From Rhizophagus irregularis (Eukaryota; Glomeromycota; Glomeromycetes; Glomerales; Glomeraceae): a stretch of DNA of 64,000 bases. The notes under the pieces are model-generated. The model saw only the letters and a program-made list of their open reading frames with translations, made no database searches and was not told the DNA's origin. The translations under genes were made by a program, and so were the position numbers. The stretch lies in assembly GCF_026210795.1 (NCBI RefSeq), contig NC_089433.1:2443001-2507000 (forward strand), read 5' to 3'. Below are positions 35,568 through 45,349 of this stretch, in pieces (the first letter of the stretch is position 1; each line of letters starts with the position of its first letter).

Positions 35568-38500
35568 CTGTCTATATTCCTCCTTATCATTCTATTCATT
35601 ATAAAGAACGTGATGCTATTTTTGCACAACTTAATTTATGGCTTGATAAAGCCCACTCTAATAATTATCATGTCGTCATCCTTGGTGACTTTAATGCAGA
35701 TGAACTTTCACATTCACATCTTCCTCAACATCATTTGAAACTTTTGCGATCACTTCCCGATATTTTACAGATCATCAATCCCATATTTCTCCGACTTCAG
35801 GTCCCAGTTCTACCTTCTATCATCAAAATGGTTCTTCAAGACTTGATTATATTTGGTCATCCCCTGGATTTCCTGCTCCCGGCCTTTTCTCTCATGTTGA
35901 AACTTGTCCTAAGTTGAATGATAAACAATTTACTGATCACCATGTACTTATAACGGCATTTGACTTCAGCTCTTGTTTCGCTACTCTAGCTAAAGTTAGA
36001 TTAAAACAAAAAAGCGAACAACGCACCATTTTTCTTTACAAAAATTTAAAGGATAACATTTGGGAAGCCTTTTCCAATGAAGTTAATTCACGTCTTGAGC
36101 TTTATTTAGCCACACACCATCCTTCCATATCTTCACTTTCCGTTCTTCCTTTGGACAAACTTTGGCACGCTCTTAAATGTTCTATTCTTGGCGGTGCCAT
36201 TGATTCTCTTCCGTTTCGACATGTATCCAATACTCATCATCATAAATATTCTCCCGAGCTTACAATGCTTATTGCTATCAACAAATTCTTGGATAGATTA
36301 TTGTTTAAATTGACTACATCTTGGACTAGTCGCCCGGCTCAAATTTCACAAATGATTAACTCTTTACCCGCACAATTGAGTCTTTTAAAATCTCTTTTAA
36401 CAGATTATACTATACCTATTTATAGTACATCACCACTTCCTGTTTTTGTCAAATTTTTGCGTTCACAAAAGCTTTGGTCTCTGCTTATCTTTCCACGCAA
36501 TTTTATCAACATCGTGTGGATTCCATTGAATTTTATACTGCTCTTAGAGATGAACATTTCTCTATGTCACCGGGTTCTTTTATTTCTTCAGCCCTGTCAG
36601 TGGACCATCGCTCTATCGTTCTTGATAGAGTTTTGGTTGTAATTGACTCCAAACCCACATTACTTACTGATCCTTCAGATATCAAACAAGCTGCCATCAA
36701 ACATTTCCAATCAGTTACTCCTCCTTTGGTTCAGCATTCTTCCACAGATGAATTTCCTCCACGTTGGCAAAGAGCATATGCTCCTATTTCTAACATTGAC
36801 TTGTCTTTATATAATTTGGTCATGTCCCCTATTCTGGAAGACGAATGGAAAAACACTATCCAGTCTATGCCCAATAACAAAGCCTCTGGTCCTTCTAAGA
36901 TCTCTTATGAGATGCTCAAACATTTAACTGGAGAAGCTTTTAATCTGTCCCTTGTATTAGCTAATGCCTGCCTTATTCATGGCGATATTCCTGCTGATTG
37001 GCGTGAAGCGCTTGTCTATCCCATCCCGAAGCCTCATGAATTTGACGCCCAATTAAAGAATACACGACCTATTACCTTGTTAGAAACTGTACGAAAATGT
37101 GTGGTTAAGGTCGTTACAACTCGACTTTCAAAAATCCTCGCTGATAACCAAGTGCTTTACCAGGCGGTTCCACTGACATTCCTATTAAAATGCTTGATGC
37201 TATTATCCATCAACGCCGCTTTGACAAAACTGATGACCAAGAGTTATGGATTGTTTCCCAAGACATTTCTAAGGCCTTTGACTCGATTGACCTAAATATG
37301 CTTAAATTGGCTTTAATCCGTTTGCATATCCCGCCTTTGTTGATCAAATTTATCATTAATCTTTTCACTAGACGTAATAATAAAATTATTACTCATTATG
37401 GTGATACTTCTGGATATAGAGTTAGAATCGGTATTGACCAGGGTGAAATTATTTCTCCGTTATTATGGGTGATTTATTTAGATCCTTTGCTTACAACACT
37501 TAATCGAGAAGCTTGTGATCCGTTTATTTTGAAATCCTCTGCATTATTGGATTACTCTCCGATTGATTATGAACAATATAATTTGCCTGTTTCTCATATT
37601 ACATTTATGGATGACTCTACTTTGATTGCTTCATCTAAACGAGGAATTGAAGATCGCCTTTCCATTACTGCTGAATTTTATACTTTAAATAATACTCAAG
37701 CAAATTCAGCAAAATATATCCTTCTTTCTTCTGAACAATTTTCTCAAACTGTAATGTTTGATCTTTCTCCCTCCCCCTTAATTTCAAGTCCTACTCTTAC
37801 TTTAAAAGCGTTAGCTTTATCTACATCTTTCCGTTTTTTAGGTGTTTGGTTTTGTCTTTCGGCTTCTTCTCGCTTTGTTCACAACCAAACCACTTCCATG
37901 GTTAAGGATATGGCCGCTCTACTCAGTCCTAAGAAACTCTTGGCACAACACGTGGCTTATCTTTATAATATTGTATTACTTCTGAGATTGGAATTTCGCC
38001 TACAAACCACACTTTTTGCTGAATCTACCATTAATCGCATGGTCTCTCCAATGCTTTCCCTTATTCGACAGAAGGCTGGTTTTGTCTCAGTCACACCTCT
38101 TTCCGCACTTTTTACATTGTTGCCGTTCTCTATTCAACAAGCATTTGGTCGATTTTTATCATCTCATGTGGCTTCATGGCAGAAAATTTTTTCTCACCCT
38201 TCATATAAACTTTTTGCCAATTATATGATTACTTATCTCCAAGGCTTCCTGGATTGTGACGCCTGTCCTTCTACTATTGATTTGGAATCATGGTCTCATA
38301 CCTTTTCCCTTCGAACACATTCTTTATTCAATTCTTTATTGTTCTCTTCTCGATTGAATTTCACGTGGTCATTATTGTTCCGACCTCCGAGGAAAGATCT
38401 ACATCCAGCGATTCCACTCCGGTCTATTTTACCAAAAGAATTATTTACTTCTATGAAAAATGTTCGAAAAAATTTTGGCACTCATTTTCTTGCTCAATTG

Positions 38501-38783
38501 GTTACTCCGTGTAGCTCGCGACTGTTGTCATGGAAAGACTTACGCTTTCTTAAACGAGTTTCGAACAAAGGATCTGTGCCTGCTTGGTTTAATTATTTAT
38601 TTAATTTTGTTGTTATTTCTAATTCTTCTTTTTTTGTTTTACCGCAATTTAGAATACCTAATTCCCATACTGTAGCTTCTATCTCTTTTATAGATATTAG
38701 TCGAAATTATTTGTTTAATCCTCAATGGGCTATTTCTTTTAATCGCAATACTAACTCTTTCCTTGTTGGCCGTGTGATTATTA
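35568..38783 (+). pseudogene. LINE ORF2: rest of endonuclease and reverse transcriptase
   Basis: Resumes with SVYIPPYHSIHYKERDA and HVVILGDFNADELSHSH (endonuclease Asp/Asn), then NGSSRLDYIWSSPGFPAPGL and TDHHVLITAF with the catalytic His. The RT follows: NNKASGPSKISYEMLKH, motif A DISKAFDSIDLNMLK, motif B GIDQGEIISPLLWVIYLDPL, motif C FMDDST (all catalytic Asp present). Then the thumb/connection region to GRVII at the DNA transposon border. Frameshifts near 35765, 36470 and 37175 split it. Frame continues beyond the transposon at 43287. Confidence 0.8.
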
Positions 38784-41700
38784 AGGACCCCGGAAACTCT
38801 ATATAAAGGTTGGTCTAAATTTTGAGAAATTTACTATTATCTTTACCCAGTTTAAGCCGAAAATTTACTAGTATCATTACCCAATTTAGAAATAACCTGA
38901 AATATTTTTCTAATATATATTACCCAAAATAAAAACAACCTATTATAATTTTATATAAGTAATTTATTAATAAAATGCGATATATCATACAAATAACGTG
39001 TTTTTTTTAATCCAGAATTGATACCAAAATATTAACTATATGTTTTTGTGAAAAAAATCAAAAATTTCCCAAGAATTTCCTATTAAACATAAACGACCAA
39101 TTAGATTAACAACTGTTGAATTAGTGTAAATTACATCCGAGCTATTATCAAAGTGATAAATAACTTGTTTTGGAGTTATATGTGCAAATAAATTGCCTCC
39201 CGTTTTACTTGCTGGAGAAAATAAATTGCCATCAATATTAATATATGTGGCAACTGAAATATAAGATAAAGAATCTATATCTTTTGAAAAAGAAATATAA
39301 GCATGTCGCTTAGATACTAATTTATATATTGACAATACTTTTCCTAGTAATATCTCTTCTTTTGATATATATAAAATAAAATTATTTTCTTGTAATGGAT
39401 TATTATCGGTTACATTTGCATAGGAAATATTTGAAGCTATTATTTAGAATAATAAATAAATATAATAAATAAAAATTAAAAAATTAAAATAATGCCTTTA
39501 CCTTTAACATGTTGGGGTAATCCAATATTCTCAAGTTTTTTTCTTCCCATCCATCTTTCTTTTCGTGATCTATTTATTAATTCAAAAGTACTATCATTTC
39601 GGAAAAATTCTGAAACTAATAAATTTGCTGAATTTTGTTTTAATTTTGCCTGATTATTGGATGATCGAATTGCATTTAATTGACGATTTTGGCAAGGTCG
39701 TTCAGATCGTGAAAATGCATTATGAGATGCACGAATTTGAATTATTTGTGATATATTCATTGAACCATCTATATAAAACAATTCATTTTGTTCTAATTCA
39801 ATCACCGGAAAATATTTTTTTGAAGTATTTAGAATATAATCCAATTCTATTTTTGATAAATCTGAAAGCTTATGCTCTTGTTCTGGTTCATTTGTTTGTT
39901 GCTCTAAATCTGCTAATTGTGATAATTGTGCTACTTCTAAAGCTGCATTAGTTAAAGAATAATCTTCATTTAAATCAGATTCATCATTATTGAAATCAAA
40001 TCCACTGATATCATTTATATCATCTGAATTATCAGAACTAATATTTAAATAATTAGAAATTGCCATTGATTGATGTGATGTTGAACCATAAAAGCGTGGA
40101 ATTGACTTATCATTTAATAGTTTAATTCCTAATACTTTAATAAATTTAGCCGCATCTTCATATGCTATTTTGATTGCATCATGAATAGCATTATCATTTG
40201 GCCATGTTCGTAAAATATCAATATTTTCATTGATTTAAAATTTGGATCAAAATCAAATATATATCCTAATAAATAATTAATAAACCAAATAAGTTAATTA
40301 TATTTATATAAAAATTTGAAATACAATGTTTATTAATTTACCTGATGCTGATGTTTTTTCCTTTTGAATTTGCATATTTTGTCTAATAATTTTGTCCCGG
40401 TATGCAACACATTGTTGAATTTTAAAAAATTCATAAAAGGAAAAATCATTTGTTATTTGACGAGATATACCAAACACATGTTCTATAGCCTCTGTACCAT
40501 GTTCCCAAGGATATAAAGGGTATGATGAGTAAAATTCACGATGAGATATAATTAAAAGTATTAAGGATTTTGCTAAATTGGTAAAAATTTTAAAACTTTG
40601 TGGAGAAATAAAGTTTTTGGCAATAGAAAACATTGAATTATATAATTTACTAGAATCTTCTATATATTCAATCCACATATTTAAAAAAAAATATCCACGC
40701 ATGGCCATTATAATTCGTTCCTTATGAGAAATATTACAATTTAGGTATGAATCAAAAAGATCTCCTATTTAAAAAATAAAAAATCTATTATACACAAATA
40801 TAATAATTATATAATAAACATTAATTATTTATTACCTAACACAAATAGATAAACAAATAAAGATTGCATTTCATTATTTTCTAAACCAGTTTGATATATT
40901 TGTGCTAATATGTCTGAATGAAATACTCTATATGCGGCCCCATCATCCTGTTTATCAACATTAACAACATCCCACATATAAAGCGCATGATCTGGAGATT
41001 GAGCAAGAGTTAAGAGATGTCGGTAAAGTATTACATTATTCCCAAGTACAAGTAGTCTTGTGCCTGAATGAAGTTGATTACGAGCTGTTTTCTTAGCATG
41101 TTTGAGATCTTGTACAGTTATGATAGGTAAATTTCGATAAATTGGCATCTATACATATTAATTTATTTAATAAAAATTTCTTTTAAAATCATACTTTTAT
41201 TATAATATAATCACCTGGAAATGTACATTATAATAATTATCATGAAATTCAAAAAAAGTTTCAGCTTTTTCACTATTCATTATTAATTGTTGCGCATTAT
41301 ATTCAACAGGAGCACCATCTGATCCCAAACTAACTAAATTAACACCTGCATCTTGGGACATGGTTATTACATTCATTAGAAGGTCATAAATTTCTGCAGT
41401 ATTAGATCCCCCATTTGTTGGTAACATAGAAATTACAAGAGGCGGAATTTTTTCAATTGGAATCTAAAAAAATACTTAAAATGTAAATAATTTTTTAATT
41501 AATTTTTATATTATATTTAATTCATACCTTTAATACTATTACTTTAACTTGAGTTGCAATAGCTTTTTTTTGTTTTATATAATTTATAACATTATGAATA
41601 TCATCATATGTTTGAACCGAAGTCTCTGATAATTTTAAAGTAGATCCAACAATACCACCTAGTTCATCTGAATAAGTAAGTTTAGGTCGAATTTTTGTAC

Positions 41701-43278
41701 AATCTGTCATTCCAACAACAGGTCCATTCCAATTAAGTGCTTTAATTAACTGAGAAAATTTTAGTATATTTTCATATATTAATTCTGGATTAGTCACAAC
41801 ATCAACTTCTTTTGCTCGCAGGTATCTTATAGATCGAACGCTCATTCCCGCAAACATTTGTCTAAAAATCTCATATTCACGACTGCTCTCTGATAATAAA
41901 CTAAAAAATTGTTTTAAGTGTTCAGAATAACGGAGACCTGTAGTTTTTTTGTTTCTTAATTTTTTTTCCTGTATTTGTATCATTAGTGATACTAATTCTT
42001 GAAATGTTTTTTCTCCTTTAAAAAATCCATCTTTTCCGAATTGAGCTAATTTAGTCCAAATTGCCGTATTGTCATTATCTTCATCAGCTAATGCCCATAA
42101 TGATTTGAGATTCGTATTAAGAAGTAATTTGCTTAAAGGATGTTCAAGATAGCATTTTGGAATAAAGCGAATATTTTTTCCAGTTGCTCGCCGCTATAAA
42201 TACAAAAAAAACAGATGATTAAATTTATAAACATAATAAATACATAATATGGTTGAACTCGTACCTTATTAATTGCTTTAATTAGGCGATTATCCCTTCT
42301 TAATTGGTCACAGTTATCACAAATACCTGATTCTCGGATTGTAAAATTTTCACATGCTTTGCTTCTGATGGATATAGTAGTTTTATCTAATATCCATGTA
42401 GCACATGCACGTAGATAATTTTTGAGATCATCACGGTTTGCTGTACTGATCCCCAAATTCAGCAGGACTATTAAGTACATACTCTCAATACTTTTCTTCA
42501 TATAATCCTTTACACGCAACTTTTTGGACAATTGTGTTTTCCTCTTCATATCTAATCTTTTTAAGTTTAAAAAAAACTTTAATACTTTGTTGACCTTCTC
42601 CACTATATTTACAATTACTTAATTCGCCATGTGTTGTAAGATTTTTATCTCTAAAATCTCGATCTAAACGAATTTCTTTACCACACTTACAACAAACTAA
42701 TTTTGGTGTTATTTCTTCCATAAAATATTTATTAGCATGCAATTTATTCTGTAACTCATCTATTTCTGTTTGTAAAAAAATTTTTTTTCTACGTTTTCTC
42801 TTTCTCTTTTGTAAATTATTTTCATCTATTATTACTTCATTTTTCTCCACGTTTATCTCATCCAACATTTCAACTAAATCATACCCGAGAAAATCAAGAG
42901 TTTCTTCAGAATCATATTCATTATCATCGGGTAGAAAAAACTTTATAAAAGGAAAATTTTTAGGACTTTCGGTTTGCATCTTTTGAATAGACGAAAAAAA
43001 TTTTTTTATCATGATTTTACAAGGTATATTTATATATATATATATTACCCCTATAAAAAATACATATGTTTGTTACCCATTATAGTAACAACCTCGAAAG
43101 TGATTATAGGACGATTACCCATTTTATGTAACAACAATATTATTCTTACCCAATTTAATAACTACCCTAAAATTTTTTTATAGCAAAATTACCCGACTTA
43201 ACGAGCAACAATTTTGGATTTTATATAACAACTTTACCCATTTTAACGGCAACCTATATATAGAGTTTCCGGGGTCCT
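38784..43278 (-). mobile_element. Autonomous AGGACCCC-type DNA transposon, 4495 bp, 8-bp TSD
   Basis: TSD GATTATTA at 38776-38783 and 43279-43286. TIRs are AGGACCCCGGAAACTCTATA followed by TAAAGGTTG or TATAGGTTG. Removing the element and one TSD copy restores the LINE ORF2 frame exactly (GRVII then TYPAPRNEALISHW). Both subterminal regions (38830-38950 and 43040-43260) hold many TTACCCA/TTTACCC repeats, about 4 on the left and 6 on the right. It encodes the seven-exon gene at 39036-43012. I cannot assign a named superfamily; the 8-bp TSD is shared with hAT, P and KDZ/Zisupton. Confidence 0.85.
39036..43012 (-). pseudogene. Seven-exon putative DDE transposase of unnamed class
   Basis: Exons 43012-42265, 42193-41528, 41463-41215, 41148-40836, 40764-40342, 40265-39502, 39436-39036; introns of 64-77 nt; about 1190 residues. 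Zinc-finger-like CCKCGKEIRLDRDF with later H and C lies at residues ~110-135, after a Lys/Arg-rich stretch. A second Cys pair (CDNC) ends exon 1. Candidate catalytic acids: VVGMTDCTKIRPKL (exon 2), VNLVSLGSDGAPVEYNAQQL (exon 3), PWEHGTEAIEHVFGISRQI (exon 5). Other strong blocks: DLKHAKKTARNQLHSGTRLL and VVNVDKQDDGAAYRVFHSDI. From memory, similar blocks (DGA-E, DPKHA-KTARN, STE-CEHVFGE) occur in uncharacterised basidiomycete proteins. Breaks: TGA near 42483, one-base losses near 42440 and 40234. Confidence 0.7.
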
Positions 43279-43286
43279 GATTATTA

Positions 43287-45066
43287 CCTATCCTGCTCCG
43301 CGAAATGAAGCTCTTATTTCACATTGGTTTGCGTCATCTATTGATGACTTATTGTCCAAATTCACTGCATGTCAAGGTTGTGCTTCTGCTATTCCGCGAT
43401 CCTTTACCTCCAAAACGTTGATTAAACGATGTCCCTCTGAAGAGTGTTTCTCTTATGTGCCTTTATCAAATCTTATCCATTACCCTACGAAGCCTCGTAC
43501 TTATATACATGTGGACACTCGTTCAGTTTTACTTTCCGCCTCGTTAGGCTATGCCAAATCTCTTTTATTATTTCATCTTTTTGCCCTGATCCGGTCACTT
43601 CCTAAGAATAATCAAGTGTCTAGGATCTCTAATATTCAACTTCCTTCTTCGGTGTCTACACTTTATGTTGATGGTTCTTTCCTTCCTCTCTCTAGTTGTT
43701 CGACACCTTCAATGACTTATGCATGTACTGCTATCGATTCTGATGGGTTTATTCTTGAATCTCATTATAATACCATTCCTTCTCTTTTTCCTTCTGCATT
43801 GCGTTCAGAAGTTTTTGCTTTATTACATGAACTGGACTCCCTTCCTCAGAATGCCAAGATTACTGTCACCACTGATTGTGCTCTATTGCTTTCTTTGTGG
43901 TCTTTATATGTGGAAGCTCCTTTTATTCCTCGAATGCTTAATGAATCCAACCACCTTTTGTGGTCTTCCTTGAGATATCTTGTCTCACAAAAAAATTTGG
44001 ATGTTACTTTGATCAAGGTTCCTGCTCATGCTGACGATGCCTTGAATAACCATGTGGATGCATTAGCTAAAGCTGCTCATACGGACTCGTCACTTTCCTT
44101 TCAATTGTTGTCCGAACCAATAGCCCCTTGCATTTTACAATTTAACTCTTTATCTGTGGATATGAATATCCGAAAATTTATTAGAGATATCTTTGACGCT
44201 AAGAGTCTTTTAACTCTTGTTATATTACCAAGATTTAATTCTAACTCTTCTATTTTTGATATCGATTGGGCTTGTACCAAATTTTGTCTTAGCAACAATA
44301 AACAAATTTTCTCCCATCGGAATGGCCGTTCTGCATTTTGTGCATTCCGTATCAAATTACTATTAGATATGCTTCCGACACTTACAACTCTTCAAAGACG
44401 AAGGCCTCATCTTTATGATCCGAGTTGGCTTTGTCCTCAGTGCAACTCCTTTCCAGAAACTCTAGACCACTTGTGGACTTGTCCTTATATTTTACCTGAT
44501 TTTAGTCTTTTTAATACTTTCAAAACACTTTTACTGGATCTTCGGTCTAAATACCTTGATAACCTTCTTTCTGCGACTCCTTTAATATCTTTACCAGATT
44601 CTTTTGTTGATGAATTTACGGCTATTGACTGTTGGAAATGTGATCCTCCTTCGATTTCCTGCCTGCGACTCGCACGTGAACTTATACCGATGTCCCTTAC
44701 TGGTTTCCTTAGAACTTATTTTTCACCATCCACTATTTGGTCTATTTTAGATACACCTTTGTACAACTTTCATTTTGACCTTTATGTTCAAATCTGGTTG
44801 TGCCGTTCCATTTTTTTTCATCATTGGGAATTAGCTCAAGGCATCACTAATAAAGTGAAATCGTCTGCCTTTGGACCTTCTCCTATCTCTCACCCTTCCT
44901 CTATAAATTCTCCTGATTCTTCGGCACCTTCCCTGGCGACAGTTTCCTTGGATTCCTGGGTTTCTTGGGTTTACTCTTATATAATCCGTGGTGGATCTTG
45001 GATCTCGCACTTGGATTTTTGGCGCCGCTTAACAGTTCAGCCTCTACTTAGGATTTCTTTTGAGTA
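43287..45066 (+). pseudogene. LINE ORF2 C-terminal part: RNase H and CCHC motif
   Basis: Continues ORF2 after the transposon and is open to a TAA/TGA region at 45066. RNase H: STLYVDGSFLPLSS (first Asp), ALRSEVFALLHELDSLP (Glu), KITVTTDCALLLSLW (Asp), then NNHVDALAKAAH (last acidic residue). Downstream a zinc-binding motif WLCPQCNSFPETLDHLWTCP. RNase H removes the RNA strand during target-primed synthesis. Listed as pseudogene because the upstream ORF2 is broken, though this portion itself is intact. Confidence 0.8.
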
Positions 45067-45349
45067 ACAGATTGGATCTTAGGGCATGCTGGATAGTTGA
45101 CTCACACTGGCCTTCGGGTAAAGTTGGGGTATGCGTTTCTGTAATAGTTTAGTTTTTCTTTACTTAATTTTATTTTGTTTAGATTTCTTTACTTGTATGA
45201 ATCGTGAAGCTAGTTCTTTTTATTTTTTATGTTTATTTTTATATATTTTTTGTTTGTAATATTGTTTGATTTGATTATTGTACTTTTCGTTTAAAAATTA
45301 TAATAAAAGATAAAGTCATAAGACTGTTTACTCATAATCACTAAATATG

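What the first reader, a model, noticed from the sequence alone, without database searches (positions are those of the whole stretch)
38784..43278. Autonomous DNA transposon with AGGACCCC ends, 8-bp TSD and an unnamed DDE-like transposase
Seen: perfect 8-bp TSD (GATTATTA), long TIRs, TTACCCA subterminal repeats at both ends, and a seven-exon gene of about 1190 codons. Excision in silico restores the LINE frame. Candidate catalytic residues sit in VVGMTDCTK, SLGSDGAPVEY and HGTEAIEHVFG. Hallmarks I know for hAT (C-terminal dimerisation block), P/THAP and KDZ (DANFRL-type core) are not evident. Inference: a distinct or poorly described fungal DDE superfamily, also present, from memory, as hypothetical proteins in basidiomycetes.
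Basis: partly seen in the sequence, partly recalled or inferred. Interest (0 to 1): 0.85.

Follow-up and report, generated by a model that had tools for sequence, protein, structure and literature searches.

The report
Divergent P-like transposon in mycorrhizal fungus
This is a real cut-and-paste jumping gene, inserted in another jumping gene of a fungal genome, and its enzyme looks like a far-removed, restyled cousin of the fruit-fly P element rather than a wholly unknown kind.

Summary
The observation largely holds. A 4,495-bp element (38784-43278) with AGGACCCC... inverted ends and a perfect 8-bp duplication (GATTATTA) interrupts a LINE; 40 of 40 scored LINE paralogues align across the joined site. 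The gene is on the minus strand, with eight exons (not seven) and about 1,172 codons, and a one-base deletion breaks its frame. The genome (size and contig number fit Rhizophagus irregularis) holds many diverged relatives; several have the same ends and 8-bp TSDs, and short non-autonomous copies exist.

No Pfam or PDB match passes threshold, but the protein keeps a P-element order: HTH-like region, D1, D2, D(2)H, insertion, E. Profile comparison scores 40.6 against P elements (E 4e-4; 0 of 300 shuffles reach it), while hAT and KDZ stay at background. It lacks a THAP finger, and a basic GTP-contacting position is replaced by near-invariant Asp. Best reading: a highly divergent, THAP-less P-superfamily lineage; a sister superfamily remains possible. 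Structure prediction was uninformative.

The parts
38776..38783 (.). 8-bp target site duplication, left copy (GATTATTA)
43279..43286 (.). 8-bp target site duplication, right copy (GATTATTA)
38784..43278 (-). whole transposon, 4,495 bp, gene on minus strand
   Evidence: empty site in 40 of 40 scored LINE paralogues
38784..38813 (+). terminal inverted repeat, 3' end of gene
43249..43278 (-). terminal inverted repeat, 5' end of gene
38843..38925 (+). subterminal TTACCC repeats (3), directly oriented with those at the other end
43045..43239 (+). subterminal TTACCC repeats (6)
42514..43012 (-). exon 1 (start codon at 43012)
42611..42691 (-). N-terminal C-x-C-G...H...C finger (not a THAP pattern)
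   Evidence: found by pattern in 7 of 9 full-length models
42265..42467 (-). exon 2
41528..42193 (-). exon 3; holds HTH-like region and D1
41840..41998 (-). region matching Tnp_P_element HTH (PF12017) below threshold (approximate placement)
   Evidence: E 0.033 with part of the family consensus, 0.13 with the whole
41702..41704 (-). D398, first catalytic Asp candidate
   Evidence: 25 of 25
41215..41463 (-). exon 4; holds D2
41317..41319 (-). D505, second catalytic Asp candidate
   Evidence: 24 of 25
40836..41148 (-). exon 5; D(2)H motif and start of insertion domain
41107..41109 (-). D553 of the D-x2-H motif (D339 in Drosophila P transposase)
   Evidence: 24 of 25; alignment
40342..40764 (-). 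exon 6; rest of insertion domain and catalytic Glu
40481..40483 (-). E738, catalytic Glu candidate (E531 in Drosophila P transposase)
   Evidence: 24 of 24; alignments
39502..40265 (-). exon 7; one-base deletion near its start breaks the frame
39036..39436 (-). exon 8, C-terminal domain of unknown fold
   Evidence: no Pfam match

Best explanation
A class II cut-and-paste transposon of a large family whose transposase is a very divergent, THAP-less member, or nearest relative, of the P-element superfamily. Inferred mechanism: the N-terminal finger and HTH-like region bind subterminal repeats and ends. An RNase H-like core (D398, D505, E738) interrupted between the D(2)H motif and the Glu by an insertion domain cuts at AGGACCCC...GGGGTCCT and joins the ends 8 bp apart, giving 8-bp duplications. 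Internally deleted copies sharing the ends look mobilised in trans. Shown here: ends, TSDs, empty site, many copies, purifying selection on the exons tested, conserved residues, P-specific profile similarity. Inferred: fold, chemistry, DNA binding. The window copy itself carries a frameshift.
For: TSD and ends. Empty site in 40/40 scored LINE paralogues. Of 15 loci examined (window plus the 14), 7 have AGGACC at both ends; of these 4 have a perfect 8-bp TSD, 1 matches over the 6 bases visible, 2 show none. Non-autonomous copies of 233 and 1,218 bp have perfect 8-bp TSDs, and one of 1,103 bp has 7/8. End 15-mer 22 times in the genome, reversed-pattern control 0. dN/dS 0.14-0.43 in 8 computed pairs. 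Profile-profile with P-like plus a Drosophila P fragment 40.6, E 3.8e-4; 300 shuffles at most 26.0. Drosophila fragment alone 27.2 against at most 26.6 in 300 shuffles. hAT plus Hermes 18.9, KDZ 20.8. HTH model PF12017 E 0.033 at the expected place with part of the consensus. Numbering of D339/H342 and D528/E531 checked on the 6p5a fragment.
Against: No profile passes its curated cut-off and no PDB chain is hit, whereas a hAT of the same genome finds Hermes at 1.8e-20. Without the Drosophila fragment the P comparisons are weak: E 0.031 and 0.049 with the 7-sequence alignment; 26.9, E 0.025 with 25 sequences, which 2 of 150 shuffles reach. HHalign probability is only 36% at best. The D1 stretch scores only 18, within background. 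THAP finger absent. Positions K400 and V401 of the GTP site are Asp here. The recognisable P-like elements of the same genome have different ends and 7-bp TSDs. The fold could not be tested. Each of the 15 full-length models shows at least one frameshift or stop (some may be artefacts of splicing), so no intact copy is established.
Confidence: 0.72

Rival explanations
1. A separate DDE superfamily, sister to P within a broader group with 8-bp TSDs and insertion domains; the P similarity reflects deep common ancestry.
For: No profile above cut-off; distinct ends, no THAP match, altered GTP-site positions, about 430 residues after E738; the Pfam-positive P-like elements in the same genome differ in ends and TSD length.
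Against: Similarity is P-specific among the three comparators tested; insertion length close to P (185 versus 192 residues between D(2)H and E).
Confidence: 0.23
2. A divergent hAT or KDZ element.
For: 8-bp TSDs also occur in Zisupton and Dileera (PMC12730594, passages) and in hAT (recalled).
Against: Profile scores at background with KDZ loci of the same genome and with hAT plus Hermes fragments; no hAT or KDZ Pfam match, including no C-terminal hAT dimerisation match.
Confidence: 0.03
3. Not a transposase lineage: a repeat or host gene family with chance inverted ends.
For: Window copy is frameshifted; many copies have stops or frameshifts.
Against: Empty sites, TSDs at unrelated loci, non-autonomous copies, purifying selection, a 99.4% identical pair at two loci.
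Confidence: 0.02

Closest known systems
P-element / THAP9 superfamily (Drosophila P transposase, PDB 6p5a)
   Same: Order HTH-like, D1, D2, D-x2-H, insertion domain, E; DPKHAKKTARN resembles SDTPHLIKLVRN and EAIEHVFG resembles DIVEHFFG; D444 may correspond to conserved D648 by reading; 8-bp TSD.
   Different: No THAP match; ends AGGACCCC; D1-D2 spacing 107 versus 73; P positions K400 and V401 align, through the local P-like proteins, with Asp607 and Asp608; sequence match below all single-profile cut-offs.
Pfam-positive P-like elements of the same genome (e.g. L030, L028)
   Same: Motif order; DPTHVFKKLRNNL and LEGLFGTIRELGGD resemble this family.
   Different: Above Pfam cut-off; ends CTAGGGGATAGG; 7-bp TSDs CTAATAT and GTATTCT, read by eye.
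hAT (Hermes)
   Same: DDE with a large insertion; 8-bp TSD (recalled).
   Different: Profile similarity at background; no hAT dimerisation match.
KDZ (Zisupton, Dileera, Kyakuja)
   Same: 8-bp TSD in Zisupton and Dileera (PMC12730594, passages); found in fungi.
   Different: Profile similarity at background; no PF18758 match.

Membership tests
P superfamily | DDE triad D230, D303, E531 equivalents | tested here: inconclusive
   E738 aligns with E531. D398 and D505 are conserved 25/25 and 24/25, but their P equivalence rests on a background-level local alignment for D1 (score 18) and on reading.
P superfamily | [C/D](2)H motif after D2 (PMC8230255, passages) | tested here: met
   VQDPKH, D553 24/25, H556 invariant; aligned with DPTH. 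Recalled: other superfamilies share this motif, so it is not exclusive.
P superfamily | Profile match above curated cut-off (PF12017, PF21787, PF21788) | tested here: not met
   PF12017 E 0.033 (15 bits, cut-off 23); PF21787 E 0.1 (13.3, cut-off 24.6) on one exon; PF21788 none.
P superfamily | Specific profile-profile similarity | tested here: met
   40.6 against at most 26.0 in 300 shuffles; hAT and KDZ at background. Probability 36%; weaker without the Drosophila fragment.
P superfamily | N-terminal THAP domain | tested here: not met
   A C-x-C-G...H...C finger instead in 7 of 9 models; no THAP match. The local P-like elements were not examined for THAP.
P superfamily | GTP-binding insertion domain (K385, K400, V401, S409, F443, D444, N447, D528; PMC7776569, passages) | tested here: inconclusive
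   K400 and V401 align with D607 and D608 via the local P-like proteins; D528 with E735; D444/N447 may match D648/N652 by reading.
P superfamily | 8-bp TSD | tested here: met
P superfamily | RNase H fold with clustered acids | tested here: inconclusive
   Only exon 3 alone was folded; mean pLDDT 36.
hAT | hAT RNase H or C-terminal dimerisation similarity | tested here: not met
KDZ | KDZ profile PF18758 | tested here: not met
   no match; profile score background
CMC / Plavaka / Transib | C(2)C and H(3-4)H between D2 and E (PMC12730594, passages) | tested here: not met
   C(2)C absent by reading the window protein and family consensus; no match to such a model

The most novel reading that the evidence does not exclude
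An undescribed DDE superfamily, sister to P, that has another zinc finger in place of THAP and whose insertion domain replaces a GTP-contacting basic residue by near-invariant Asp, so that it may work without GTP or with another cofactor, and that has diversified into many subfamilies in one arbuscular mycorrhizal fungus.
Probability: 0.25. Interest if true: 0.6.

Novelty: new variant of a known kind. Interest (0 to 1): 0.42.

Why it matters
About 30% of R. irregularis genomes is reported as unclassified TE sequence (PMC11075540, section 10). This family, with clear ends, TSDs, full-length and short copies, could classify part of it (whether published libraries already hold it was not checked), and it extends P-like transposases to a form without a recognisable THAP finger. 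Its changed insertion domain is a natural test of whether GTP is required across P-like transposases.

Tried and rejected
Rejected: hAT, KDZ, CMC/Plavaka (see tests). Other sub-threshold Pfam and NCBIfam matches (DisA-linker, MtrF, OSCP, YlmH, GerE, PRK06019 and others) were taken as chance. Scans of viral and prokaryotic contigs, each with two peptide patterns, found no relative; a P-like scan of viral contigs found none. A PDB search with the N-terminal half of a P-like protein gave only an antibody chain, so the D1-D2 half of Drosophila P could not be added. AlphaFold on exon 3 alone: mean pLDDT 36, not used. Five of the six dN/dS values were read in a wrong frame and are discarded; one search replaces them (its ninth pair failed for lack of synonymous differences). 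The secondary-structure estimate uses recalled Chou-Fasman values and is not used as evidence. The regular expression for D1 failed and is not used. The automatic TSD search for the P-like elements found nothing because its start points were a few bases off; their 7-bp TSDs were read by eye from the same output.

Dropped rows: the 25-sequence family alignment holds 8 of the 15 gene models and 17 of the 22 models (L015, L019, L056, L059, L065 dropped); L020 is broken by a Gypsy-like insertion. Alignment A1 holds 7 sequences picked. P-like alignment: 9 of 13 loci. KDZ: 4 of 6 loci as concatenated ORFs, without splicing. hAT: first 5 of 6 loci as concatenated ORFs, then 5 of 6 gene models plus two Hermes fragments.
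Full report
What is there. The element spans 38784-43278 and is flanked by GATTATTA on both sides. Its ends are inverted repeats starting AGGACCCCGGAAACTCTATATA; the repeat finder's arms are 59 nt at 75% complementarity and include 5 nt of each TSD. In the 350 bases at each end, three TTACCC repeats lie near the left end and six near the right, against 0.05 and 0.09 expected from shuffles. All point the same way. L012 has 1 and 2, L014 and L021 have one at one end only, and L018 has none, so they are not shared by every relative tested. The flanking ORFs are a LINE with reverse transcriptase and RNase H matches. Joining the two flanks with one TSD copy gives a 600-base query that all 40 scored paralogues match across the junction (152 candidates in the first look, 40 scored), the best at 94% identity over 2-599. 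The insertion and its target duplication are therefore shown.

The gene. It lies on the minus strand, 43012 to 39036, with seven introns of 46-76 nt with GT-AG ends, hence eight exons. Homology-guided splicing with the window's own protein recovers the same model with about 1,172 residues and one frameshift at residue 797. The frameshift is one missing base in a short A run; the base is present in both close copies L009 and L010. The window copy is thus probably defective, unless the assembly dropped a base. All 15 models show at least one frameshift or stop, some perhaps artefacts of splicing, so no intact copy is established. Over residues 457-643 (two exons in the window, one in most relatives used), dN/dS is 0.14-0.43 in the 8 pairs that could be computed; several have near-saturated synonymous sites. 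This indicates past purifying selection.

The family. One exon finds 139 exon-level matches in the 146.7-Mb, 32-contig genome. Of 15 loci examined (the window and the 14), 7 have AGGACC at both ends; 4 of these have perfect 8-bp TSDs, 1 (L014) matches over the 6 bases in the stretch, and 2 (L011, L017) show none. The other 8 lack one or both ends by this exact search. L011 and L012 are 99.4% identical over 4,984 bp at two places. The 15-mer AGGACCCCGGAAACT occurs 22 times in the genome, against 0 for the reversed control pattern. Three close inverted pairs are short non-autonomous copies: 233 bp with GTGGAAAT, 1,218 bp with ACTGTACT, and 1,103 bp with TTTGTACA/CTTGTACA.

What the protein is. 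Single-profile searches do not classify it. Pfam gives only sub-threshold hits, but two of them are P-element models: PF21787 at E 0.1 on the exon with D2, and PF12017 at 0.029 in 1 of 7 members and at 0.033 with part of the family consensus (0.13 with the whole), just upstream of D1. These have little weight alone, since an unrelated model (DisA-linker) reached 0.0023 in the same search. PDB searches find nothing, although a hAT of the same genome finds Hermes at 1.8e-20. The genome also holds elements above the Pfam P cut-off, and a profile of three of them finds Drosophila P transposase (6p5a) at 3.2e-6. Comparing a 25-sequence profile of this family (24 used) with nine of those P-like proteins gives 26.9, E 0.025, which 2 of 150 column shuffles reach; with the smaller 7-sequence alignment E is 0.031 and 0.049. 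After adding the Drosophila fragment 335-561 the score is 40.6, E 3.8e-4, probability 36%; 300 shuffles reach at most 26.0. The Drosophila fragment alone scores 27.2 at the catalytic Glu motif, against at most 26.6 in 300 shuffles. KDZ (20.8), hAT (20.2 and 21.2 in two versions) and hAT plus Hermes fragments (18.9) stay at background. The P signal is specific but moderate.

Residues. Numbering of the 6p5a fragment was checked against published residues. The alignment places QDxKH on the DPTH of the local P-like proteins, which corresponds to D339-TP-H342, and EAIEHVFG on the E531 motif. Conservation, gaps and X left out: D398 25/25, D505 24/25, D553 24/25, D607 24/25, D608 25/25, D648 22/23, E735 24/24, E738 24/24. 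By reading, D1 (TDCTKIRPKLTYSDELGGIVG) resembles the local P-like HDSFKIQKGLLWSQRENCYVGY; the profile alignment finds this pairing only at background level (score 18). Spacing D1-D2, D2-D(2)H, D(2)H-E is 107, 48, 185 here against 73, 36, 192 in Drosophila P, from the published positions (PMC8230255, passages). Drosophila K400 and V401, which contact GTP (PMC7776569, passages), align through the local P-like proteins with Asp607 and Asp608 here. GTP binding in the same manner is therefore doubtful. There is no THAP match; a C-x-C-G...H...C finger stands near the N-terminus in 7 of 9 models.

Contrast within the genome. Two Pfam-positive P-like copies (98.7% identical over 5,573 bp) have ends CTAGGGGATAGG and, read by eye, 7-bp duplications CTAATAT and GTATTCT. 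The present family is thus distinct from the recognisable P elements of its host.

Fold. Exon 3 alone, without an alignment, gave pLDDT 36.

Literature. Searches of the open library returned no listing that I recognised as describing this family. I saw passages of PMC12730594, PMC11075540 (also section 10), PMC8647823, PMC8230255 and PMC7776569, and the outline of PMC10234402. PMC11075540 reports about 30% of R. irregularis genomes as unclassified TE sequence and lists P among its search profiles; whether its library contains this family was not checked. Subscription papers and Repbase were not searched.

Verdict. A real and sizeable transposon family, best filed as a highly divergent, THAP-less relative of the P superfamily, with membership probable rather than proven.

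Noticed in passing
L030 (G000:C2) and L028 (G000:C12): Pfam-positive P-like elements of about 5.5 kb with CTAGGGGATAGG ends and 7-bp TSDs; 98.7% identical over the shared stretch, so apparently recent.
   Followed up: partly
window 37148-38806 and 43247-45067: The host LINE of the insertion belongs to a numerous family; the 40 paralogues scored match at 88-94% identity.
   Followed up: partly
L020 (G000:C19:1391500-1397700): A relative of the transposon is interrupted by a sequence that reads like a Gypsy reverse transcriptase and integrase, a nested insertion (named by reading).
   Followed up: no
window 42468-42513: Intron 1 would be only 46 nt; its boundaries are the least certain of the model.
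   Followed up: no
L009 (G000:C18): The closest copy (about 98% over its main part) lacks recognisable AGGACC ends and carries an extra stretch of about 345 bp.
   Followed up: no
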